Shown here piece by piece: positions 1 through 21,431 of a DNA stretch of 22,829 nt. The position numbers and the translations under genes were made by a program. The stretch lies in contig JAFQNM010000234.1 of assembly GCA_017395885.1 (NCBI GenBank), positions 1 to 22,829 of the forward strand. Reading direction: 5' to 3'. The notes beneath the pieces are model-generated. The model saw only the letters and a program-made list of their open reading frames with translations, was not told where the DNA came from and ran no database searches. The first letter of the stretch is position 1. Every line of letters starts with the position of its first letter. This DNA comes from Clostridia bacterium. Lineage in GTDB: Bacteria > Bacillota > Clostridia > Oscillospirales > CAG-272.

Positions 1-1239
1 ATACTTTCCCGTATTATCGCCGCGACCGCAGCCATCGTGCTGTCGGTCTCGGCCCTGGCCTCCTGCCAGCCCAAGGATATAACCTATACCATTAACGTGA
101 AGGATATGATAGGAACCCCCTATACCTCCGGTATCATCGTTAACTTTATGCAGGACGGAGAAAAGGTTGCTACTCAGATCGTAAATGACCAGGGTATTGC
201 AGAAAAGATTCTCCCCGCAGGAGACTACACCGTTGAGCTTGACTTTACTGCAGGCAAGGATGCATACTATTTTGCAGGCGGAGTTTCCCTATCCACGAAA
301 AACACCACAGCAGATGCTATTCTTGCAAATAAGCTCAACTCTGAAGCAAGGACCGCAACCGTAGGAGCAGATGAGTTTGATGCTTATGACGTTGCTACAG
401 GATGCACGTATCTTGAGCTTCAGAAGGATATCCGCAACTACTATTTCTTTACCCCTACTCAGGCCGGCCACTACAGAGTTTCCGTTGCAGACGGTGCATC
501 CGTTGAGATCGGTCACTACGGTGCTCCTCACTTTATTCAGGAGTTCAGCGTATCCGATGTGGTTGACGGTGCTTTTGAGTTCGACGTTAAGGACGGAATG
601 ATCGGTGACGGAAGCGGCGGCACAAGCGTTTACGTTTTTGGTGTTGACTCTAAGGACGGTGCTGAAAGCTGCGTTATCGCAATAGAAAGAACAGGCGATC
701 CTACAAAAACTATTGAGGATGAGCCCTGGACAGAATATAAGGCTTCTCATACCCCTGCTCTCTATACTCTCCCCCAGGGTCTGACCATCAAGGAATTCGA
801 CCTGACAGCAGATACCGATGAGTATAGCTTCGTTCTCGACACTGCAACAGGCTACTACCACCTTGGCTCCAAGGATGGCCCCATAGCTCTCGTACGTCTG
901 GCTGAGGACTGCGATTACATCGCCTGCTACGCAACCATTCTTGAAAAGCAGGGAGTTGTTAAGTATTTCTATGACGGCGAAGAAAAAACATATGAAAACT
1001 TCGTGAAGAGGGAAAACTACTCAAATTGCCTCCTTGACTATATAGACTGTGCAGATGAGACACTGGGTGTTTACCCCCTCACAGAGGACCTTATGTATAT
1101 CATTCAGCAGAACGGCGATCATATGGGCTGGTGGGATCCTGACGGAAGCACCTATCGCTTCCTTAATATGGACGACACAAAGGACCTTACGATCAATACA
1201 GAGATCGCCTGGCTGCTTATGTGCTGCTACGCAGAATAA
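1..1239 (+). CDS. Secreted lipoprotein with Ig-like, beta-rich and shared C-terminal modules (5' partial)
   Basis: The reading frame is open from base 1, so the true start lies upstream of the window. The visible N-terminus is the hydrophobic core of a signal peptide ending in a lipobox (LASC, Cys about residue 21), so the protein is probably a membrane-anchored extracellular lipoprotein. After the Cys comes an Ig/transthyretin-like domain (roughly residues 25-100), then a beta-rich region with a YYFFTPTQAGHYRVSV stretch that resembles repeats in the large protein at 3727-5862. The C-terminal 130 residues (from GYYHL at base 850) are clearly related to the C-terminal part of that same protein: both have GYYHLxSxxGPI, a DY..C segment, GxYPLTxDL, a GW pair and AW...CY. 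The next gene begins 6 bases after the stop, which suggests an operon. I do not recognise the family, so the function is unknown; a surface role is inferred from the signal peptide. Confidence 0.85.
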   Translation: MLSRIIAATAAIVLSVSALASCQPKDITYTINVKDMIGTPYTSGIIVNFMQDGEKVATQIVNDQGIAEKILPAGDYTVELDFTAGKDAYYFAGGVSLSTKNTTADAILANKLNSEARTATVGADEFDAYDVATGCTYLELQKDIRNYYFFTPTQAGHYRVSVADGASVEIGHYGAPHFIQEFSVSDVVDGAFEFDVKDGMIGDGSGGTSVYVFGVDSKDGAESCVIAIERTGDPTKTIEDEPWTEYKASHTPALYTLPQGLTIKEFDLTADTDEYSFVLDTATGYYHLGSKDGPIALVRLAEDCDYIACYATILEKQGVVKYFYDGEEKTYENFVKRENYSNCLLDYIDCADETLGVYPLTEDLMYIIQQNGDHMGWWDPDGSTYRFLNMDDTKDLTINTEIAWLLMCCYAE

Positions 1240-1245
1240 GCTCTT

Positions 1246-2109
1246 ATGAAAAAAACACATTCAATTTTCTCCTTCTTATCCCTTCTCATAGCCGCTACTC
1301 TTCTTCTTTCTGTGCTTGGCGGCTGTGGGAAGGAGCCTGAGCCTTGCGACTTCACCGTTTGGGTGAAGTCCGAGGGGGGCGCTCCCCTTAAAGGAGTAGA
1401 CGTTCATATCTACACAGATGAGACCCGTACAGACCTTGTCTGGGTAGGCCATACCGATGCCGACGGCAAGACCGTGTTCGAGGGAAAAAAGGGCAACACC
1501 TATACCGCCTTTCTTGAAGAGGTTCCCGCCGGATATACCGTTGATGAGAGGTACTCCGTTGCCGGAGAGCAGACAGAAATAATCCTGAGTATTCAGCTCC
1601 TCAGCGAGGACCTCCTGAACGAAAACTTTTTCCGCACAGGAAACGTTGCAGTGGATTTTTCCTTTACAGATACCGATGGAAATACCCACCGCCTCTCTGA
1701 GCTCCTTGAAACAAAAAAAGCTGTTATCCTTAACTTCTGGTTCCTTAACTGCGACCCCTGCCGTATGGAATTTCCCTATATGCAGGAAGCCTATGAGGAA
1801 TATAAGGACAGGATAGAGGTAATCGCCGTCAACCCTATGGATGGTAACAACGAATCTATCGCCTCCTATGCCGAGGAGCTGGGCCTCACCTTCCCTATGG
1901 TGAAGGGCAGCTCAGAATGGCAGGAAGCAATGGGCCTTAACGGATATCCTACAACCGTGGTCATAGACCGCTACGGTACCGTTGGCATGGTTCACTCTCA
2001 TGCATTTACCGGTGCCGAGGACTTTATTAAGGTGTTCGATTTCTTCACCTCTGATAATTACGTTCAGACTACCGTGAGAAATCTCAGCCAGATAAACGAT
2101 ATCAAATAA
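1246..2109 (+). CDS. Thioredoxin-like (TlpA/redoxin family) lipoprotein
   Basis: The signal peptide ends in the lipobox LGGC (Cys27), so this is predicted to be a lipid-anchored extracytoplasmic protein. Residues about 35-115 form an Ig/transthyretin-like domain of the kind also seen in the lipoproteins before and after it. Residues about 133-280 form a TlpA/ResA-like redoxin fold: a redoxin-type strand, FSFTDTDGNTHRLSELL, then NFWFLNCDPCRMEF with the redox cysteines C169 and C172 (CDPC), and the cis-proline loop GYPTTVVID (P235). Family members reduce or exchange disulfides outside the membrane. No cytochrome maturation genes are nearby, so a role on neighbouring surface proteins or in oxidant defence is only inference. 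The start has almost no Shine-Dalgarno sequence and sits 6 bases after the previous stop, so translational coupling is likely. Confidence 0.88.
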   Translation: MKKTHSIFSFLSLLIAATLLLSVLGGCGKEPEPCDFTVWVKSEGGAPLKGVDVHIYTDETRTDLVWVGHTDADGKTVFEGKKGNTYTAFLEEVPAGYTVDERYSVAGEQTEIILSIQLLSEDLLNENFFRTGNVAVDFSFTDTDGNTHRLSELLETKKAVILNFWFLNCDPCRMEFPYMQEAYEEYKDRIEVIAVNPMDGNNESIASYAEELGLTFPMVKGSSEWQEAMGLNGYPTTVVIDRYGTVGMVHSHAFTGAEDFIKVFDFFTSDNYVQTTVRNLSQINDIK

Positions 2110-2127
2110 ACGAAAGGAATGAAAGAA

Positions 2128-2565
2128 ATGAGAAACGTCAGATCTATTCTTGCTCTTCTCCTCTGCGCTTGCCTGCTCTTCGCTCTTTGCGCTTGCGGCA
2201 ATGCAGGTACAGATAAGGAGAGCAATGATTCCAAGAACGAAATTACAACTCCCGCTCCCGCTGATAGCGAAACAGATCCCCTGCCTGCAGTTACCTTTAC
2301 GGTTAAGGTAGTTGACGAAGAGGGCAACGGTGTTTCCGGCGCATGGATCAAGGTTTGCAAGGGAACAGAAAACTGCTACACCTCTATGTCCGACGAGAAG
2401 GGCAACGCCCCCTTTATTGAAACAAATATTCCCGAGGTTACCGCTGAGCACGAGCTTTCCGTTCTCACAGTTCCCGATGGTTATTCTTACACAGGCGAAG
2501 AGGTAGTTCACCTCACAGCGGGCATCACCGAATATACAGTTACCCTTACAAAGGCAGCTGAATAA
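2128..2565 (+). CDS. Small lipoprotein with a single Ig/Cna-B-like domain
   Basis: An in-frame ATG at 2119 exists, but I chose 2128: AAAGG at 2113-2117 lies 10 bases before it, and the product then begins MRNVRS, a normal signal-peptide start. The lipobox is LCAC with Cys23. After a short acidic/Thr/Pro linker, the rest (residues about 50-145) is one beta-sandwich of the Cna-B or carboxypeptidase-regulatory type, with the typical VKVVDEEGNGVSGAWIKV opening and a closing YTVTL strand. This is the same kind of domain as in the thioredoxin-like lipoprotein just upstream, here without an enzyme domain. Such domains are usually structural or binding modules. It lies 18 bases downstream of that gene and is probably co-transcribed. 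Confidence 0.8.
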   Translation: MRNVRSILALLLCACLLFALCACGNAGTDKESNDSKNEITTPAPADSETDPLPAVTFTVKVVDEEGNGVSGAWIKVCKGTENCYTSMSDEKGNAPFIETNIPEVTAEHELSVLTVPDGYSYTGEEVVHLTAGITEYTVTLTKAAE

Positions 2566-2616
2566 AAAAGCTGACCGCACATAGCTTCATTGCCAAACGG
2601 CAAAATAAACTAAGGC

Positions 2617-3633
2617 ATGGTCAAAACTATGAATAAAGCATTAAAGATACTTTCTCTTCTTCTTGCTCTGGCTATACTTTTCGGTACACTCTGCGCCTGT
2701 GGCAAGGACACAGTGAACGACGATACCGACTCGGACAGTGTGGTCGATTCAAACGATACAGAAGATACAGAGAAAGGAACAGACTACTCAGATGATACTG
2801 AGGACCCCGAAGAGGAAACTACAGGCGAGGGCAAGGAAACTACAGGTGAAGATGAGACAACGGCTGAGCCCGATGAAACCACAGCACCTGTAACGACCGT
2901 TCCCCCCGTTACTACTGTCCCTCCCGTTACAACAGAGCCCCCCGTTACAAATAACGAAGGCGAAACTCTTGCAGGCAAGGGCAGCGCAACTGATCCATAC
3001 CTTGAGATCCCCACAGTTGGCACAGGCAGCATGAGCATAACAACTGTTTCCATCCCTGCAGGCACATCCAAATTCTACGGTATCCAGCGTATCGGCGGAA
3101 TGGTGGTCACCGTTAATAATGCAAACGTTTATATCGTCAGCAACGGAACCCGCTACGATGCTCAGAACGGTGTTCTCACCTTTGTCGCTCCTGCGGCTCT
3201 CGCCAGCGACTACGTAACTCTGGAAATTGGTAATAAGGGTGGCGCAGCAGCCTCCTTCACTCTGGTTTTCACAAACCTTGAGGGAACTCAGGCTAATCCC
3301 AAGATCGTTGCCGCAGGCACTATCTCAACTGCGAAATCCGTTTCCCTCTCAGCCGATGATTCTGACGGATATACGTATAAGTATATGGCTGAAAAGGCAG
3401 GCAAGATCCGCTTCTACATGACAGCCTCCACTACAAGCATTATGTCCGTAACAAATAACCGCAACTCCGCTCAGCGTACTACCGAGTCAGACGCCCAGTG
3501 TGATGCAAACGGTACCTATATTGAGATAGACGTTAATGCAGGAGACGAGCTTATCATCATCGTTGGAGCAAAGCCCAATCAGAGAGGTAAGTACCCTGCA
3601 ACAAATATTAACTGGTACGGAAAATATATTTAA
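2617..3633 (+). CDS. Lipoprotein with long acidic/TTP-rich stalk and two beta-rich modules
   Basis: A signal peptide ends in the lipobox LCAC (Cys28). The start is either ATG 2617 or ATG 2629 (MNKALK); TAAGG at 2611-2615 is badly spaced for both, so the choice is open. Residues about 30-115 are a low-complexity stalk rich in Asp, Glu and Thr, then PVTT/VPPVTT repeats, which is typical of a segment spanning the cell wall. A module beginning GSATDPYLEIP follows and resembles the N-terminus of the mature protein at 3727-5862 (GSSTDPYLIS). A second beta-rich module contains GYTYKYMAEKAGKIRFYM and NAGDELIIIVGA, like the repeats of that protein. It looks like a lipid-anchored partner or paralogue of the larger anchored protein. 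Function unknown. Confidence 0.8.
   Translation: MVKTMNKALKILSLLLALAILFGTLCACGKDTVNDDTDSDSVVDSNDTEDTEKGTDYSDDTEDPEEETTGEGKETTGEDETTAEPDETTAPVTTVPPVTTVPPVTTEPPVTNNEGETLAGKGSATDPYLEIPTVGTGSMSITTVSIPAGTSKFYGIQRIGGMVVTVNNANVYIVSNGTRYDAQNGVLTFVAPAALASDYVTLEIGNKGGAAASFTLVFTNLEGTQANPKIVAAGTISTAKSVSLSADDSDGYTYKYMAEKAGKIRFYMTASTTSIMSVTNNRNSAQRTTESDAQCDANGTYIEIDVNAGDELIIIVGAKPNQRGKYPATNINWYGKYI
2887..2949 (+). repeat. VPPVTT-type repeat in lipoprotein stalk
   Basis: Imperfect in-frame repeats encode PVTT, VPPVTT, VPPVTT and EPPVT in succession. Thr/Pro-rich repeats of this kind usually form extended stalks that lift a domain away from the membrane. Copy number in such tracts often varies between strains. 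Confidence 0.7.
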
Positions 3634-3651
3634 TTAAAAACTATCAAACGA

Positions 3652-3680
3652 TTGCATTATAATTTGATATGTGATATAAT
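3652..3680 (+). promoter_or_regulatory. Sigma-A promoter of the anchored surface protein gene
   Basis: TTGCAT (3652-3657) is followed after exactly 17 bases by TATAAT (3675-3680), with TGA just before the -10, which gives an extended -10 element. It lies in the gap after the lipoprotein gene ending at 3633 and drives the gene at 3727, whose ribosome site AGGAGG (3711-3716) is strong and 10 bases from the ATG. The large surface protein therefore probably has its own promoter, separate from the upstream lipoproteins. Confidence 0.8.
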
Positions 3681-3686
3681 ACCATC

Positions 3687-3700
3687 ATTGCAAATGCAAT
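3687..3700. promoter_or_regulatory. Perfect palindrome at the transcription start region (possible operator)
   Basis: ATTGCA-AA-TGCAAT is a perfect 6+6 inverted repeat 6 bases downstream of the -10, about where transcription should start. The same ATTGCA hexamer also overlaps the -35 (3651-3656). The position suits an operator for a repressor, but no regulator is identified. Confidence 0.4.
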
Positions 3701-3726
3701 CAAAAATACAAGGAGGTTAAAACCAA

Positions 3727-5862
3727 ATGAAAAAGGTTTTAAGCATCATTATGGTTCTGGCAATGCTTGCAATGTCAGTAACCGTCTATGCTGTTAGCGG
3801 AACGGGTTCATCTACAGATCCCTACCTTATCAGCAATGAGGACACTACCCCAATAACTATAACCGTTCCCGCCGATACTGAGGTGTGGATCCAGGCTAAC
3901 AACTCAAACGGCTCTGTTCTCAAGGTCACAGAGGCATCAAGCACAAATTACTTCTTCTGGTACTGCAGACAGAACTATATCGCAGAGGATGCTCTTACCC
4001 TTGTTCCTGATGTTAATCTTGTTAACCTCAAGAATACAGGCACATCCGACCTCGTTATCTCTCTTCTTCTTGAGGGCGGCGCAGACGAGATCAAGGGCAC
4101 TGTTGATAACCCCGAGAACATCGAGCTTGTTGAAAACGATTTCAGCCATGCTCTCGGTGCATACGTAACCACAGAGCTTGAAGCAGGCAACAACGGCTAC
4201 TACTACACCTTCAATGCCCCCGCTGACGGTGTTATCTCCGTATACGTTTCCGCTTACGACAGCGAGTATAACGATATTGGCTGGATGTTCTTCGTTAATA
4301 ACATAACAAAGAGCAGATACGGCGAATTCCGCTACAGCGACGATGCTGAGGTAGTTAATCCTGAGAACGTTAAGGTTTCTGCAAACGACGAGATCGTTGT
4401 TTTTGCAAGCACCTATAACCCCGAAAGCAGATGGTCCAACCCCGCAGGCGGCATTGGAGTGAACATTTCCTTTGCAGGCGTTGGCACAAGCCTATGCCCC
4501 GAGGATATTACTGCAGGCAATCACAGTACAACTCTCGCAGCTGACTCCCAGGGCTATTACTACAACTGGACAGCAGCTGAGTCAGGCACCGCAACCTTCA
4601 CAATGAATACTGCAGCAAACTGGCAGTACTCCATCACTAAGACTCCCGCAAACGGCTTCCCCACCTACGGCGATACACACTGGCACGATGACGATCCTGT
4701 GGTTTCCACAGAATCTCACACAGTAGCAGCAGGTGACGTTCTCACCATCTGGGTCAACACATACGATCCTTCCAATATGTTTGGCTCACCCGCAGGTGCG
4801 CTCGACTGGACACTTTCCTTCACAGCAGGCGAGGGCGGCGGAAACGATGACAACATCGGTGGCGGCGGTGACGATGACATCATCGGCGGCGGTGACGACA
4901 CCCTCGAAGTTAACTGGGAGCTTTCCGATAAGTACCTCTCCGTAGGTACAGACTCCTACCCCGCAAGCAACACATACCCCTACACCGTATATGCATTCGA
5001 GCCCACAGAAGTAGGTAAGTATACCTTCACATCTACTGATTCTCTTATCGGTCTTGTAAGTAACAACGGTATGTGGATCACAGCAGGCACAAGCACAAAT
5101 GCTATCACAGACGGTGTTGTTACAGAAAATTCCTTTGAGTGGACCTGCACAAGCGTTGGTCAGTCCATCTGGGTGGCTGCTCTTCCCGATACAAACGTTG
5201 CAACCATCACAGTTGAGTACGAAGAGGTCGTTATCCACGAGATCCCCCGCGAGTACTATGAAAACACAGTAACACCTGAGGCATTTGAGTTCGGCGGCAA
5301 TGCTGATGAGCTTATGTACGTTGATACCTTTGACGGCATTGAGGACACAGCAGTTCTCGGTGCAGACGGCTACTACCACCTCAACTCTGCAAACGGCCCC
5401 ATCCTCTTTGCAAACCTCAATGATCCCATGATGTCCCTCTCTGCTGCAAACAGCTACGGCCAGCTCAAGCAGCTCATTAATGAGAATGGCGAAGTAGTTC
5501 TCATCATAGACTATACTTTGGCAATGATTGACTACCTTGCTTGCATGGATCAGGAAACAGGCCTCTATCCTCTTACAGCAGACCTTATCGAGGTATTCAA
5601 TAAGGCAGGAACAAGCCTTGGTTGGTACGGCGCAGAGGGCTGGCTCGGCGGCGAGGAAGCAGATGCCTGGATGTTCGCTTGCTACTACGATGAGGCAATC
5701 ACCGGTGAAGGCGATATTCCCGGCGGCAACGGTAACAACGCCGACCAGAACACAACATCTCCCTCTACAGGAGATAACGTAATGATTATCGTAACAGTTG
5801 CAGTTGTAGCTCTTGCAGCTACTGCTACTCTTCTCGTTTTCAGAAGAAGAAGAACTAACTGA
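3727..5862 (+). CDS. Large sortase-anchored surface protein with tandem beta-rich modules
   Basis: The protein has 711 residues. Its signal peptide ends near VYA (residue 23), and the C-terminus has an SPSTG sorting motif (residues 678-682), a hydrophobic segment and an RRRR tail, which is the layout of a sortase substrate. SPSTG fits the (S/P)PxTG variant known for some clostridial sortases. The ectodomain has an N-terminal GSSTDPYLIS module also present in the upstream lipoprotein. Two clearly duplicated modules follow (about residues 119-258 and 259-375), each with GYYY...A..G and TY(N/D)P...PAG...SF. Then come a Gly/Asp-rich linker, a fourth beta-rich module, and a C-terminal module (about residues 515-660, GYYHL at 548) shared with the first lipoprotein of the window. 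These resemble PPC-like beta-sandwiches, but I do not recognise a named family. A binding or adhesive role is inferred. No sortase gene is in the window. Confidence 0.85.
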   Translation: MKKVLSIIMVLAMLAMSVTVYAVSGTGSSTDPYLISNEDTTPITITVPADTEVWIQANNSNGSVLKVTEASSTNYFFWYCRQNYIAEDALTLVPDVNLVNLKNTGTSDLVISLLLEGGADEIKGTVDNPENIELVENDFSHALGAYVTTELEAGNNGYYYTFNAPADGVISVYVSAYDSEYNDIGWMFFVNNITKSRYGEFRYSDDAEVVNPENVKVSANDEIVVFASTYNPESRWSNPAGGIGVNISFAGVGTSLCPEDITAGNHSTTLAADSQGYYYNWTAAESGTATFTMNTAANWQYSITKTPANGFPTYGDTHWHDDDPVVSTESHTVAAGDVLTIWVNTYDPSNMFGSPAGALDWTLSFTAGEGGGNDDNIGGGGDDDIIGGGDDTLEVNWELSDKYLSVGTDSYPASNTYPYTVYAFEPTEVGKYTFTSTDSLIGLVSNNGMWITAGTSTNAITDGVVTENSFEWTCTSVGQSIWVAALPDTNVATITVEYEEVVIHEIPREYYENTVTPEAFEFGGNADELMYVDTFDGIEDTAVLGADGYYHLNSANGPILFANLNDPMMSLSAANSYGQLKQLINENGEVVLIIDYTLAMIDYLACMDQETGLYPLTADLIEVFNKAGTSLGWYGAEGWLGGEEADAWMFACYYDEAITGEGDIPGGNGNNADQNTTSPSTGDNVMIIVTVAVVALAATATLLVFRRRRTN
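4835..4900 (+). repeat. Gly/Asp-rich linker repeat
   Basis: An imperfect tandem repeat of about 24-27 bases encodes GGGNDDNIGGGGDDDIIGGG. It separates two beta-rich modules of the surface protein. Clustered Asp and Gly could bind calcium, but the spacing does not match a standard RTX nonapeptide or EF-hand, so it is best read as a flexible acidic linker. Confidence 0.6.
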
Positions 5863-5974: not shown

Positions 5975-7000
5975 TTAAGGGATTTCAGAAAGCATATTAT
6001 CAATAAAGATCCCGTATCCACGGCAGGGGTCAGAGACAAGCACGTGGGTAACTGCTCCAATAAGCTTTCCATCCTGAACTACGGGGCTGCCTGACATTCC
6101 TCTGACGATGCCTCCCGTTTTTTCTACGAGGCTTGTATCTGTTACTGTTATGAGAAAGTTTTTATTCTCATCCTTCCCTTCATCAAGCAGAGTAATCTCA
6201 ACGGCATACTCACAAACTCCCTCTCCGTCAACCGTTGAAAAAATAGTTGCTCCCCCATTTCTGATGGAATCCCTTTCTGCAATGCCGATCTCCCTTTTCT
6301 CAAATCCCTTGGGATATGAGGTCATATACCCAAAAACACCGCTGTTTGTGTTTTTGGTAACTGCCCCTAGATGCTCCGGGTGAAACTCTCCCTTAAGCTC
6401 TCCCGGTGCTCCTGACTTACCCTTTTGCACCCCTGTTACCGTCACAGCCGATACAACAGCCTTTTTAAAACCACACAGCTCTCCGCCTTCAGTTTTTACA
6501 ATACCGTGCCCCAGGCCGCCAAAAGCGCCGCTATCCTCTTTTATAAAGGTTACCGTTCCAAGACCGGATGTTCCGTCCTCAAGCCAGAGCCCTATTCTCA
6601 GCTCACCTGTTTTTGTGGACAGCATTGGAGTAACGCTAAGAGAAAGCTTCTCTTCTCCTCTTTCCAGCTCAAAGCTTACCGCCGCTCCATTGCTGCTCTT
6701 CACCTCCAGCGTCACGTCAAGAGCGCTCTTTATATCCTTTCCGTTGACCTTTTTTATAATATCATTTTCCATAAGCCCAGCATCACGTGCCGGAGAGCAG
6801 ATACCGCTCTCCGTTTCCACGTCATCAAACCCGCCTACTCTCAGCTCCCCGGTCTGGAGGCTGACACCAAAGGGCATCCCTCCAAGCAGCACTGTTTTCG
6901 GCAGCGCAACGCTTCCCTTTGCACTCACGCTGCAGCTCAGCAGAAATATGAGCGCAAGAAGGATAGCTGCTCCTCTTTTTATATTCGTTTTATATTTCAT
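5975..7000 (-). CDS. spoIVB: SpoIVB peptidase (sporulation intercompartmental signalling)
   Basis: SpoIVB is a serine peptidase made in the forespore. It is secreted into the intermembrane space and triggers sigma-K activation in the mother cell through the SpoIVFA/SpoIVFB complex. The 341-residue product has an N-terminal membrane or signal segment (about residues 10-27), a PDZ domain (about 60-125) and the SpoIVB peptidase domain. The likely catalytic residues are H165 (GLGHGI), D288 (VTDTS) and S303 (GIVRGMSGSPVVQDGK), and the AVTHVLVSDPCRGYGIF ending is characteristic. A TTG at 7012 is also in frame, but ATG 7000 is preferred because AGAAAGG (7020-7014) is far too close to the TTG. It is shorter than the B. 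subtilis protein (about 425 residues). spo0A, its usual neighbour, is not downstream. Confidence 0.95.
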   Translation of the reverse strand: MKYKTNIKRGAAILLALIFLLSCSVSAKGSVALPKTVLLGGMPFGVSLQTGELRVGGFDDVETESGICSPARDAGLMENDIIKKVNGKDIKSALDVTLEVKSSNGAAVSFELERGEEKLSLSVTPMLSTKTGELRIGLWLEDGTSGLGTVTFIKEDSGAFGGLGHGIVKTEGGELCGFKKAVVSAVTVTGVQKGKSGAPGELKGEFHPEHLGAVTKNTNSGVFGYMTSYPKGFEKREIGIAERDSIRNGGATIFSTVDGEGVCEYAVEITLLDEGKDENKNFLITVTDTSLVEKTGGIVRGMSGSPVVQDGKLIGAVTHVLVSDPCRGYGIFIDNMLSEIP

Positions 7001-7276
7001 GCATATGTCCAAGCCTTTCTTTTTCTATGCTATTTCCCGTACAGCATTAATTTGCTCATTTTTTGCCCCGTATATGAATTGAAAAATTATAAACCGCTTC
7101 ATTTCTTTTCCATTGACAATTATTTTAGACAATCGCAAAATTAAATCTCACGTATCGTTCATTCTGCATTTGCCTAAATCCCTGAGCCTTTGTACCGCAA
7201 GCGATTTGGGCGTTTGGCATCTTTTATTATCCCTCTGCATATACTGTATAAATCAAACAGTTTTCGGAGGTTTTAT

Positions 7277-19089: not shown

Positions 19090-19106
19090 AATACATGAAT
19101 AAAATA
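19081..19106 (+). repeat. Perfect 13-bp tandem duplication across the ttcA stop codon
   Basis: CATGAATAAAATA occurs twice in a row (19081-19093, 19094-19106). The first copy carries the last two codons and stop of the ttcA-like gene; the second lies between it and the next start and creates an extra in-frame ATG (19095) for the transglutaminase gene. Confidence 0.9.
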
Positions 19107-19118
19107 GTAGGAGAAAAT

Positions 19119-20447
19119 ATGAAAAGATTCCTTTCAATGGCTCTCGCCATTATCATCTCGGTTTCTCTGTTCGTTTCCGGCGTACCCGTTTTTGCGGCAA
19201 GCTCAGAGCTCACCGTTAACGATTTTTACGGCAGAACTGCCCTCTCCAAAATGAGCAGGGGAAGCACCTACGTTGCCGTATATGACCACCTCTACGAGTG
19301 TGTTGAGAACGGAGACGCAGAGATAGACGTTTCAGCATACAACATTTCTACCGGTGAGCTGGATATGATCCTTATGGCGTATTTCGGTGACCCCACAGGC
19401 CACTTCTGGTTCACCTCAAACGGCTCATATGATAGCAATACCTACACAGGCCAGGCTCTTGCATTCTTTCCGTTATACAATTCTCTCGTTGGCCGGACTG
19501 ATAATGACAGAGCGGTGTTTGTGAAGAGATTTGAAAAAAGCGTTGACAGCTTTATTGCATCTCTCCCAATCTCCTCCCGTATGAGCGAATACGAAAAGGA
19601 GCTTATCGTTCACGATGCACTTGCGATGCTCATTGAGTATGACGATGCGGAGTTTGCTCACAGTGCCTACGGTGCCTTGCTGGAATACATAGCAGTTTGC
19701 GAGGGATATACATATGCCTTTGGCTATATTCTTGCAAAGCTTGGTATCCTTTCTCACGCAGTTTACGGCTATTCGAGAAATCAGCTCCATACGTGGAACC
19801 TGGTTAAGATAGACGGCAGCTTCTACTACTTAGACCTCACCTGGAACGACCAGACATTGCCCGGAAGTGCAGCCAAAGGCATTGACGTTTTTTACGAATA
19901 CTTTAACGTTACGACACAGGTCATCAACAGAGATCACAGTATCATCACACCTGCCTACGGCCTGCCCCAGTGCACCGCCACCGAGGCAAATTATTTTTCC
20001 AAGAATCCCCAAAACGTGGTCAACTCCAACACCGATGCCAAAACCGTTGCCAAGCTTTGGAACGACCACGCAATCAGGATATATTTTGACGGAACAGCCA
20101 CAGAGTTCAATATATGGATCTCCGATATTATAAGTGACGTTGCTTACTATTGCGGATACGATTTTTCAAAGCCCATTAGTTTAAATATACGCTCCATGCC
20201 GGAAGGCAACGAGGTTCACCTTTTCTTCACGGGAACGCTTCTCCCCTCGGAGGAGCCGGATATTCTCCTCGGAGACCTTGACGGAGACAATAAGGTCACC
20301 GCCATAGACTCAAACCTTATCAGAAGAATCCTTTCCGGCACTGCCGAAAAGAATGACAGCGTTCTCATCCGTGCCGATATGGACGGTGACGGCTCCCTCT
20401 CAGGAATAGACTCAAACCTTTTGAAACGATTAATTGCAGGTAGCTAA
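19119..20447 (+). CDS. Secreted transglutaminase-like protein with C-terminal dockerin
   Basis: I chose ATG 19119 because GGAG is 5 bases before it and a normal signal peptide (MKRFLSMALAIII...VFA) follows; the ATG at 19095 arises from a local duplication. The middle is a transglutaminase-like cysteine-protease fold with a probable catalytic triad C194 (AVCEGYTYAFGY), H224 (LHTWNLVKIDG) and D239 (YYLDLTWND). The last 58 residues (385-442) are a type I dockerin: two calcium-loop repeats, DLDGDNKVTAIDSNLIRRIL and DMDGDGSLSGIDSNLLKRLI. Dockerins bind cohesins, so the protein is probably assembled on a cell-surface or extracellular scaffold; no cohesin is in the window. Its stop overlaps the next ATG by one base. 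Peptidase, cross-linking or binding activity is not settled by sequence. Confidence 0.92.
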   Translation: MKRFLSMALAIIISVSLFVSGVPVFAASSELTVNDFYGRTALSKMSRGSTYVAVYDHLYECVENGDAEIDVSAYNISTGELDMILMAYFGDPTGHFWFTSNGSYDSNTYTGQALAFFPLYNSLVGRTDNDRAVFVKRFEKSVDSFIASLPISSRMSEYEKELIVHDALAMLIEYDDAEFAHSAYGALLEYIAVCEGYTYAFGYILAKLGILSHAVYGYSRNQLHTWNLVKIDGSFYYLDLTWNDQTLPGSAAKGIDVFYEYFNVTTQVINRDHSIITPAYGLPQCTATEANYFSKNPQNVVNSNTDAKTVAKLWNDHAIRIYFDGTATEFNIWISDIISDVAYYCGYDFSKPISLNIRSMPEGNEVHLFFTGTLLPSEEPDILLGDLDGDNKVTAIDSNLIRRILSGTAEKNDSVLIRADMDGDGSLSGIDSNLLKRLIAGS

Positions 20448-21121
20448 TGGAAAACAATCTTTATAAAGACGAAATAGCCGGCTTTCTTATAGAAAATTCT
20501 CCTGAGGATATTCAGAATTTTATGCTTGAGCTGCAGACGCTTATGTCCTATTACAAATGTGCAATGCACGAGATAGAGGCAAAGTTCAAGGTGCTCAACG
20601 AGCAGTTCTCCCTTCAGCACGAGCGCAACCCCATCGAAAGCATAAAAACAAGGCTCAAATCCTTTAAGAGCATCCGCGAAAAGCTCCAGCGCAAGGGTCT
20701 TCCTCTTACTGCTCAGTCTATTTGGGATAACCTGAACGATGTTGCAGGCATCCGTGTAGTGTGCAGCTTTATAGACGATATTCATATGCTGGGATACTGC
20801 CTTATCTCACAGGATGACGTTAAGCTTATCGAGATCAAGGATTACATAGAGCATCCCAAGGAGAACGGATACAGAAGCCTCCACATTATCGTTGAGGTGC
20901 CTATCTTTCTTTGCGATGACAAGCGCCTTGTACGGGCAGAGGTTCAGCTCAGAACCATCAATATGAACTCCTGGGCAAAGCTGGAGCACCGTATGAGATA
21001 CAAAAAGAATCTCTCAGAGGACCTGCTTTTAAGAACTCACGACGAGCTTCTTGAATGCGCAGAAATATCAAACCAGCTCGACCTGAAGATGCAGGCCATA
21101 AGAAATATAATCGAAAAATAA
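20447..21121 (+). CDS. Small alarmone synthetase (ppGpp synthetase, YwaC/RelP-like)
   Basis: Transfers pyrophosphate from ATP to GDP or GTP to make (p)ppGpp, the stringent-response signal. The protein has 224 residues and only the RelA/SpoT synthetase domain, with no HD hydrolase or TGS/ACT regulatory domains. Motifs are HERNPIESIKTRLKSFKSIREKLQRKG (59-84), NDVAGIRVVCSF, DYIEHPKENGYRSLH and AEVQLRTINMNSWAKLEH, with the catalytic E165. HxxNPIE and VCSF are closer to YwaC/RelP than to YjbM/RelQ, but the subtype is tentative. It starts inside the previous stop (TAATG), so its translation is probably coupled to the dockerin protein. Confidence 0.92.
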   Translation: MENNLYKDEIAGFLIENSPEDIQNFMLELQTLMSYYKCAMHEIEAKFKVLNEQFSLQHERNPIESIKTRLKSFKSIREKLQRKGLPLTAQSIWDNLNDVAGIRVVCSFIDDIHMLGYCLISQDDVKLIEIKDYIEHPKENGYRSLHIIVEVPIFLCDDKRLVRAEVQLRTINMNSWAKLEHRMRYKKNLSEDLLLRTHDELLECAEISNQLDLKMQAIRNIIEK

Positions 21122-21218: not shown

Positions 21219-21431
21219 ATGTCAAAAGCCGCAACGCCCAGAGATAATGCTGTTATCGAATCTTTCTTCGGCAGATTCAAAGACGTAATGTCATCACACT
21301 TCCGGTACTGGAAGTGTGATGACATTACGAAGGTCGTTTCTGATACTGTTTACTATTTCAATTATATCAGACCTGTTCGTAAATTAAATAGAAAGCCGCC
21401 AGTCCGATACAGGATCGAACCGGCAGCCTAA
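21219..21431 (+). pseudogene. C-terminal fragment of IS3-family transposase (rve integrase core)
   Basis: The 70-residue frame reads SKAATPRDNAVIESFFGRFKDVM, then VYYFNYIRPVRKLNRKPPVRYR, which is the end of an IS3-family OrfB integrase core. The E of AVIESFF is the last residue of the DDE triad. The two catalytic aspartates and everything before them are missing, so it cannot be active. The ATG at 21219 is an internal codon and probably not a real start. A perfect 20-bp inverted repeat disrupts the middle of the coding region. Confidence 0.85.
21284..21329. repeat. Perfect 20-bp inverted repeat inside the transposase remnant
   Basis: CGTAATGTCATCACACTTCC (21284-21303) and its exact reverse complement (21310-21329) flank the 6-base loop GGTACT. 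A perfect 20-bp arm is rare by chance in coding DNA. Confidence 0.95.

What the first reader, a model, noticed from the sequence alone, without database searches (positions are those of the whole stretch)
850..5700. A shared, unnamed C-terminal module in a lipoprotein and a sortase-anchored protein
The last about 130 residues of the first lipoprotein (from base 850) and residues about 515-660 of the anchored protein share a pattern I do not recognise: GYYHLxSxxGPI, then DY..C, then (E)TxGxYPLTxDL, then GW, then AW...CY. The same spacing and order in two proteins of one cluster, one anchored by lipid and one in the wall, suggest a domain with a specific surface job, for example binding a common ligand.
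Basis: partly seen in the sequence, partly recalled or inferred. Interest (0 to 1): 0.8.

Follow-up and report, generated by a model that had tools for sequence, protein, structure and literature searches.

The report
Shared surface domain in protease-redox cluster
Two surface proteins of an uncultured Clostridia bacterium share a real, still unnamed domain, and in most related genomes that have it the domain goes with a large surface protease, a peptide importer and thiol-active proteins, which may form a kit for opening, cutting and eating outside proteins.

Summary
The C-termini of the lipoprotein (1-1239) and the anchored protein (3727-5862) are homologous (BLASTP E 2e-13; profile-profile E 3e-31), with the same predicted order of strands and helices. 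No Pfam or NCBIfam model matches. A third copy sits on a dockerin protein in the same genome. The window holds the tail of a larger conserved locus, complete in relatives: NapH-like 4Fe-4S/redoxin fusion, CXXC protein, ~2,400-aa subtilase with leucine-rich repeats, OppABCDF, a redoxin protein with two modules, then the window's genes. Of 196 family genomes 16 have the module; a close subtilase is in 14 of these 16 and 0 of 180 others, the full fusion in 15 of 16 and 1 of 180. CcdA and VKOR gave no match in the 16. My reading: a surface system that reduces disulfides of outside proteins, cuts them and imports the peptides, with the module as capture or docking domain. Domain and linkage are shown; the mechanism is inferred, and the subtilase was not found in the window's own incomplete assembly.

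The parts
1..1239 (+). Lipoprotein (412 aa seen, 5' end cut by the contig edge; lipobox-like stretch ending at Cys22, by eye): CnaB/transthyretin-like domain (about 25-112), ColG-CBD/PPC-like beta-sandwich (about 110-231), then the module
   Evidence: most listed homologues are 400-430 aa
835..1236 (+). Module copy 1 (residues 279-412), Cys 304, 309, 343, 350, 408, 409
1246..2109 (+). Redoxin lipoprotein: prealbumin-like stretch (SpaA, under cut-off) plus TlpA/ResA-like redoxin, active site CDPC
2119..2565 (+). Small lipoprotein with a weak Ig-like match (IG150), syntenic in relatives
2617..3633 (+). Lipoprotein with Thr/Glu-rich linker and a beta-rich second half (PPC340), syntenic in relatives
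   Evidence: no Pfam match, so the beta-sandwich label is by eye
3727..5862 (+). Wall-anchored protein (711 aa): beta-sandwich domains (124-368 match ColG CBD in fold), module, SPSTG-type sorting signal
5347..5694 (+). Module copy 2 (residues 541-656), Cys 606 and 652

Best explanation
The module is a small alpha/beta domain with one near-invariant cysteine in its last strand, carried by surface proteins of one conserved locus. Shown: homology of the copies, the predicted common layout, and the linkage of the module genes with a surface subtilase, an Opp importer, extracytoplasmic redoxins and a NapH-like ferredoxin/redoxin membrane protein. Inferred: electrons cross the membrane through the ferredoxin/redoxin fusion and the CXXC protein, reach the surface redoxins, and reduce disulfides of proteins from the surroundings; the subtilase cuts the loosened proteins; OppABCDF imports the peptides. 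The module, present on the redoxin protein, on a membrane lipoprotein and on wall- or dockerin-attached proteins, is most likely the part that captures substrate protein or docks these proteins to one another, so that reduction, cutting and uptake happen in one place.
For: Module homology. Same element order (b b b a b b a b a a b) in both AlphaFold models, 10-residue pLDDT blocks of 88-98 in the module. Redoxin-module protein with a module lipoprotein next to it in 15 of 15 family genomes that have it. Subtilase with S8, PA, fn3_5, Big_2 and LRR_5 domains, and OppA with SBP_bac_5; OppB, OppC and OppD by Pfam. Asp, His and Ser motifs present in 13 of 13 subtilase sequences looked at, 9 of them cut by the end of the fetched stretch. 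Close subtilase (62% identity or more) in 14 of 16 module genomes and 0 of 180 others; on the same contig as a module in 12 of the 14. Full-length ferredoxin-redoxin fusion in 15 of 16 and 1 of 180. A genome of a different family of the same class (G651) keeps a redoxin-module protein (29% identical; its module matches weakly, E 4e-6), fusion, CXXC protein, OppFDCBA and an S8/PA/fn3_5/LRR_5 subtilase (30% identical) on one contig. CxxC present in 120 of 120 redoxin-module proteins examined, the listed best of 1840. No match to CcdA/DsbD or VKOR in the 16 module genomes, while CcdA is in 46 of 192 family genomes, so the fusion is the natural candidate electron source.
Against: No assay of any kind. 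The redoxin-module protein and the subtilase were not found in the window's own assembly, and Opp was not searched there; it is 72% complete in 303 contigs, and the fusion and CXXC protein are there at the end of contig C288. Genome G081 has the module but neither subtilase nor fusion. Three genomes of another family (G293, G331, G352) show a single module match, in a lipoprotein-like protein without the other labelled genes in the stretch fetched. Some match to one part of the fusion occurs in 153 of 196 genomes, and some subtilase relative at E 1e-60 in 44 of 196; only the full-length and close forms go with the module. The direction of electron flow (reducing, not oxidising) is inferred; DsbB was not tested. 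The Fisher values (about 1e-19 and 2e-20) ignore relatedness of the genomes. The possible partner of the last cysteine differs between classes and is missing in 20 of 82 anchored-class modules.
Confidence: 0.5

Rival explanations
1. Surface thiol maintenance: the redoxins keep the cell's own surface proteins (module cysteines, the Cys next to the subtilase's catalytic Ser) reduced or repaired, like pneumococcal Etrx proteins; the module is a client, not a tool.
For: The last-strand Cys is kept in 96% of lipoprotein-class, 96% of anchored-class and 100% of redoxin-class rows; the Cys pair at columns 132 and 193 alone is found in 116 of 123 redoxin-class rows; 10 of 13 subtilases read GTSMACP at the active Ser. 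Surface thioredoxin lipoproteins with a reductase partner are known in pneumococcus (PMC3914529, abstract and section list seen).
Against: Does not explain the Opp importer and the LRR subtilase in the same locus, nor modules fused to the redoxin itself.
Confidence: 0.25
2. The module is an adhesin domain for a host or food ligand (for example a glycoprotein), with the redox and protease genes only loosely related.
For: Wall, lipid and dockerin anchoring of the same domain; neighbouring ColG-CBD/PPC-like and CnaB-like domains.
Against: Copies on a membrane redoxin protein and close co-occurrence with subtilase and ferredoxin fusion are unexplained.
Confidence: 0.15
3. The module is a C-terminal folding or assembly tag that surface machinery recognises.
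For: In the window's lipoprotein and its aligned homologues it is the C-terminus; half-modules end lipoproteins beside DUF58 and BatA/vWA genes in seven of the module genomes.
Against: In anchored and dockerin proteins it is internal, and in the redoxin protein one copy lies mid-protein.
Confidence: 0.1

Closest known systems
Cell envelope proteinase (PrtP/lactocepin) plus Opp system of lactic acid bacteria
   Same: S8+PA+fn3_5 surface protease together with oligopeptide importer OppABCDF (PMC7783315, passages seen)
   Different: Here with BspA-type leucine-rich repeats, dedicated redoxins, a ferredoxin-type membrane protein and the new module; 'disulfide' does not occur in the main text of PMC7783315
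Etrx/CcdA/MsrAB2 surface thioredoxin system of Streptococcus pneumoniae
   Same: Thioredoxin-fold lipoproteins on a Gram-positive surface (PMC3914529, abstract and section list seen)
   Different: No CcdA match in the 16 module genomes; a NapH-like/redoxin fusion instead; protease and Opp in the locus; MsrAB not looked for
TlpA/ResA thiol-disulfide oxidoreductases
   Same: Redoxin domain with CxxC
   Different: Window redoxin scores 95.8 bits with the NCBIfam ResA model, under its cut-off of 170; in relatives a redoxin is also fused to modules
NapH-like ferredoxin-type membrane proteins
   Same: Fer4_5 domains; best NCBIfam hit NapH/MauN 75.8 bits, under its cut-off of 213
   Different: Fused to a ResA-like redoxin domain
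ColG collagen-binding / PPC beta-sandwich and CnaB/transthyretin-like domains
   Same: Fold matches for the lipoprotein's first two domains and for the anchored protein's 124-368
   Different: These are the neighbours of the module, not the module

Membership tests
Any described Pfam-A or NCBIfam domain (for the module) | Score over the curated cut-off | tested here: not met
   33 module copies scanned: no Pfam family is hit by more than 2 members, all with E above 0.009; NCBIfam best E 0.046; nothing over the module in the whole window proteins
Any solved fold (for the module) | Structural match of the module taken alone | tested here: inconclusive
   Only whole-protein models were searched; neighbouring domains filled the lists
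LPXTG-type sortase substrate (anchored protein) | C-terminal sorting signal | tested here: met
   PF00746 20.7 bits (cut-off 20), TIGR01167 17.9 (cut-off 15.9); motif SPSTG by eye; sortase gene not looked for
TlpA/ResA-like redoxin (window 1246-2109) | AhpC-TSA/Redoxin domain with CxxC | tested here: met
   PF00578 71.8 bits; CDPC
CEP-Opp proteolytic system | Surface subtilase with S8, PA, fn3_5 and intact catalytic motifs | tested here: met
   In relatives; in the window's own incomplete assembly not found at E 1e-60
CEP-Opp proteolytic system | OppA and OppBCDF on the same contig as the protease | tested here: met
   G003, G118, G010, and G651 of another family; for other genomes only part of the region was fetched
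CEP-Opp proteolytic system | Protein cleavage and peptide uptake measured | not testable with these tools
   needs experiment
Etrx/CcdA/MsrAB2 surface redox system | CcdA-type electron donor | tested here: not met
   PF02683 in 0 of 16 module genomes; control rings in 10 of 14 reference genomes
Etrx/CcdA/MsrAB2 surface redox system | MsrAB partner | not tested
   -

The most novel reading that the evidence does not exclude
Gut Clostridia own a surface machine for reductive proteolysis: cytoplasmic electrons, carried out by a ferredoxin-type membrane redoxin, open disulfides of extracellular proteins, which a leucine-rich-repeat subtilase then cuts for Opp import, and an undescribed cysteine-bearing domain family holds the machine's parts and its substrate together. 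This would let anaerobes use disulfide-rich proteins that resist proteases.
Probability: 0.35. Interest if true: 0.8.

Novelty: new variant of a known kind. Interest (0 to 1): 0.63.

Why it matters
A domain family with 590 matching proteins for the lipoprotein form and at least 1840 for the C-terminal half of the redoxin form, which also holds other domains, has no name in the libraries used. Its locus links three processes that are usually studied apart: surface proteolysis, peptide import and extracytoplasmic thiol chemistry. If right, it gives a testable answer to how strict anaerobes in the gut use disulfide-stabilised proteins, and a job for the NapH-like/redoxin fusion and its CD1871A-type CXXC neighbour, a name for which the paper library gave no hit.

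Tried and rejected
Family searches with the module gave nothing beyond chance in Pfam and NCBIfam; the sequence search against solved structures gave only E 0.47 or worse for the module profile and none for the anchored protein. First guess that the ~980-aa protein beside the Opp genes is the Opp binding protein: rejected, it is a redoxin with modules, and a separate OppA exists. Idea that the lack of the redoxin-module protein in the own assembly means a reduced locus: not favoured, since the contig starts inside the lipoprotein and the assembly is 72% complete. Idea of a CcdA-fed system: rejected. DsbB, MsrAB and sortase were not tested. Paper searches: eight sets of terms aimed at such a locus or its parts gave no paper that looked relevant in its listing; two aimed at known systems gave the papers cited; open-licence PMC only. 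In one search rows were picked by the pattern D/G/A-G-Y/F-Y-H, so the invariance of those residues there is by construction; for that motif I rely (A3 was drawn from hits of the model). The active-site tally was mis-framed by my pattern and was redone.
Full report
Observation. The window is the whole contig C146 of a 72%-complete genome in 303 contigs. Five genes run in the same direction from base 1 to 5862: a lipoprotein cut by the contig edge, a redoxin lipoprotein, a small lipoprotein with a weak Ig-like match, a beta-rich lipoprotein and a protein with a sorting signal. The first and last share a C-terminal segment: BLASTP E 2e-13; profiles of 122 and 81 homologous segments align over 156 columns, E 3.3e-31. 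The homologous stretch starts somewhat earlier (about residues 237 and 502) than stated.

The family. 590 proteins match the lipoprotein's C-terminal part (best 120 listed), 85 the anchored protein's and at least 1840 the redoxin protein's residues 460-979, which include other domains (best 120 listed). Carriers are lipoproteins of about 410 aa, anchored proteins of about 700 aa, dockerin proteins (own genome; 16 of the 85 carry PF00404) and a redoxin protein of about 950 aa. In the last, a first module is found in 120 of the 120 listed proteins and a further stretch in 71 of 120. Across 33 module copies the columns conserved in 90% or more are D, G, Y, H, G, P, Y, Y, L, C and Y. Cysteines: the one in the last strand is kept in 96%, 96% and 100% of the lipoprotein, anchored and redoxin classes (122, 82 and 123 rows); its possible partner sits at a different column in each class (col 95 in 99% of lipoprotein rows, col 106 in 66% of anchored, col 132 in 95% of redoxin rows), 20 of 82 anchored rows have the last Cys alone and 2 have none. 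I read this as one disulfide with a migrating partner, but a free functional Cys is not excluded.

Distribution. With the 33-copy alignment: 16 of 196 genomes of the family, 10 of 295 of the order, 4 of 391 of the class, and of 299 of the phylum only the window's own; each count includes the window's own genome and the draws overlap. The five named relatives found with the anchored protein are Oscillospiraceae or Clostridia assemblies; four titles name goat, water buffalo (two) or sheep gut, one names no host.

The locus. In G003, G118 and G010 the order is: NapH-like 4Fe-4S/ResA-like redoxin fusion, CXXC protein (NF040920 35 bits against a cut-off of 32, scored on the G031 copy), subtilase of about 2,420 aa, a lipoprotein of about 340-440 aa, OppA, OppB, OppC, OppD, OppF, an 85-90-aa membrane protein, the redoxin protein with modules, then orthologues of the window's five genes; G010's fusion is cut by the contig end. 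Family labels rest on Pfam or NCBIfam for representatives and on BLAST for the rest. G451, of another family of the order, runs from OppA to the anchored protein in the same order, and the five named relatives show the same order for the part their stretches hold. A second layout (for example G031, G054, G117, G147) has subtilase, redoxin-module protein, module lipoprotein, CXXC protein and fusion without the anchored protein in the stretch fetched; in G112, G155 and G179 Opp genes lie beside the redoxin-module protein or the subtilase. In G651, of another family of the class, redoxin-module protein (29% identical), fusion, CXXC protein, OppFDCBA and a subtilase with S8, PA, fn3_5 and LRR_5 (30% identical) lie on one contig. 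In the window's genome the fusion and CXXC protein are at the end of contig C288.

Association. Among the 196 family genomes, the subtilase at 62% identity or more is in 14 of the 16 module genomes (missing: G000, G081) and 0 of 180 others; the next best is 52% identical, and 44 of 196 have some relative at E 1e-60. The full-length fusion is in 15 of 16 (missing: G081) and in 1 of 180 (G068); 153 of 196 have some weaker or partial match. G099 has the two halves in neighbouring frames and I counted it as not fused; G010's copy is cut by contig ends and G179's is split between the subtilase contig and the module contig. Fisher tests give 1e-19 and 2e-20 but treat related genomes as independent; the module genomes fall in 11 of 71 genera. 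The redoxin-module protein is in 15 of 16 (not in the own assembly), each time beside a module lipoprotein.

Chemistry. CxxC is intact in 120 of 120 redoxin-module proteins listed (CSWC 103, CTWC 10, CGPC 7) and in the window's redoxin (CDPC). Catalytic Asp, His and Ser motifs are present in 13 of 13 subtilases looked at, nine of which are cut by the end of the fetched stretch. CcdA/DsbD and VKOR match in 0 of 16 module genomes; the controls ring in 10 and 3 of 14 reference genomes. CcdA is present in 46 of 192 family genomes. DsbB was not tested.

Interpretation. Surface protease plus Opp is the known nutrition system of lactic acid bacteria (PMC7783315, passages seen). Here it is combined with a private thiol branch and an undescribed domain. 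The simplest reading is reductive digestion of outside proteins, with the module as capture or docking domain. Steps shown: homology, architecture, linkage, intact active-site motifs, no match to CcdA or VKOR. Steps inferred: direction of electron flow, substrate, binding by the module.

Literature. Eight searches of the held library aimed at such a locus or its parts listed no paper that looked relevant, and two aimed at known systems gave the two papers I opened (PMC3914529: abstract and section list; PMC7783315: passages). Of the other listed papers I saw only titles and abstract starts.

Noticed in passing
L122-L128 (seven of the 16 module genomes), L120 (G651): Lipoproteins of about 500-590 aa ending in a C-terminal half-module lie beside DUF58, BatA/vWA and vWA genes in 8 of 8 loci looked at, with MoxR in 7 (L128 is cut there); Pfam names come from L124, the rest by tblastn.
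   Followed up: partly
L028:12954-14123, L029:13450-14688: A redoxin-like protein after the anchored protein without the active-site CxxC (FWYESSPSAV in G003), with Ig-like domains.
   Followed up: no
L112:716-4651 (G439): Two tandem module proteins of 586 and 682 aa on a contig other than that of the main locus.
   Followed up: no
L044, L045 (G003, G118): Proteins of about 1,555 aa carrying one module in their last third, on contigs other than that of the main locus.
   Followed up: no
window 5978-7012 (-): SpoIVB-type S55 peptidase with PDZ domain, convergent to the anchored gene; found just beyond the locus in G003 and G118 too, so probably only a positional marker.
   Followed up: partly
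window 21219-21431 (+): Short ORF matching integrase-core models rve_3/rve_2, probably a transposase remnant.
   Followed up: partly
window 19095-20447 (+): Secreted protein with a C-terminal Dockerin_1 domain and a transglutaminase-core match just under its cut-off; with the dockerin module protein on C176 it suggests dockerin-based assembly in this genome.
   Followed up: partly
window 20447-21121 (+): Small RelA/SpoT-domain protein, probably a short alarmone synthetase (PF04607).
   Followed up: no
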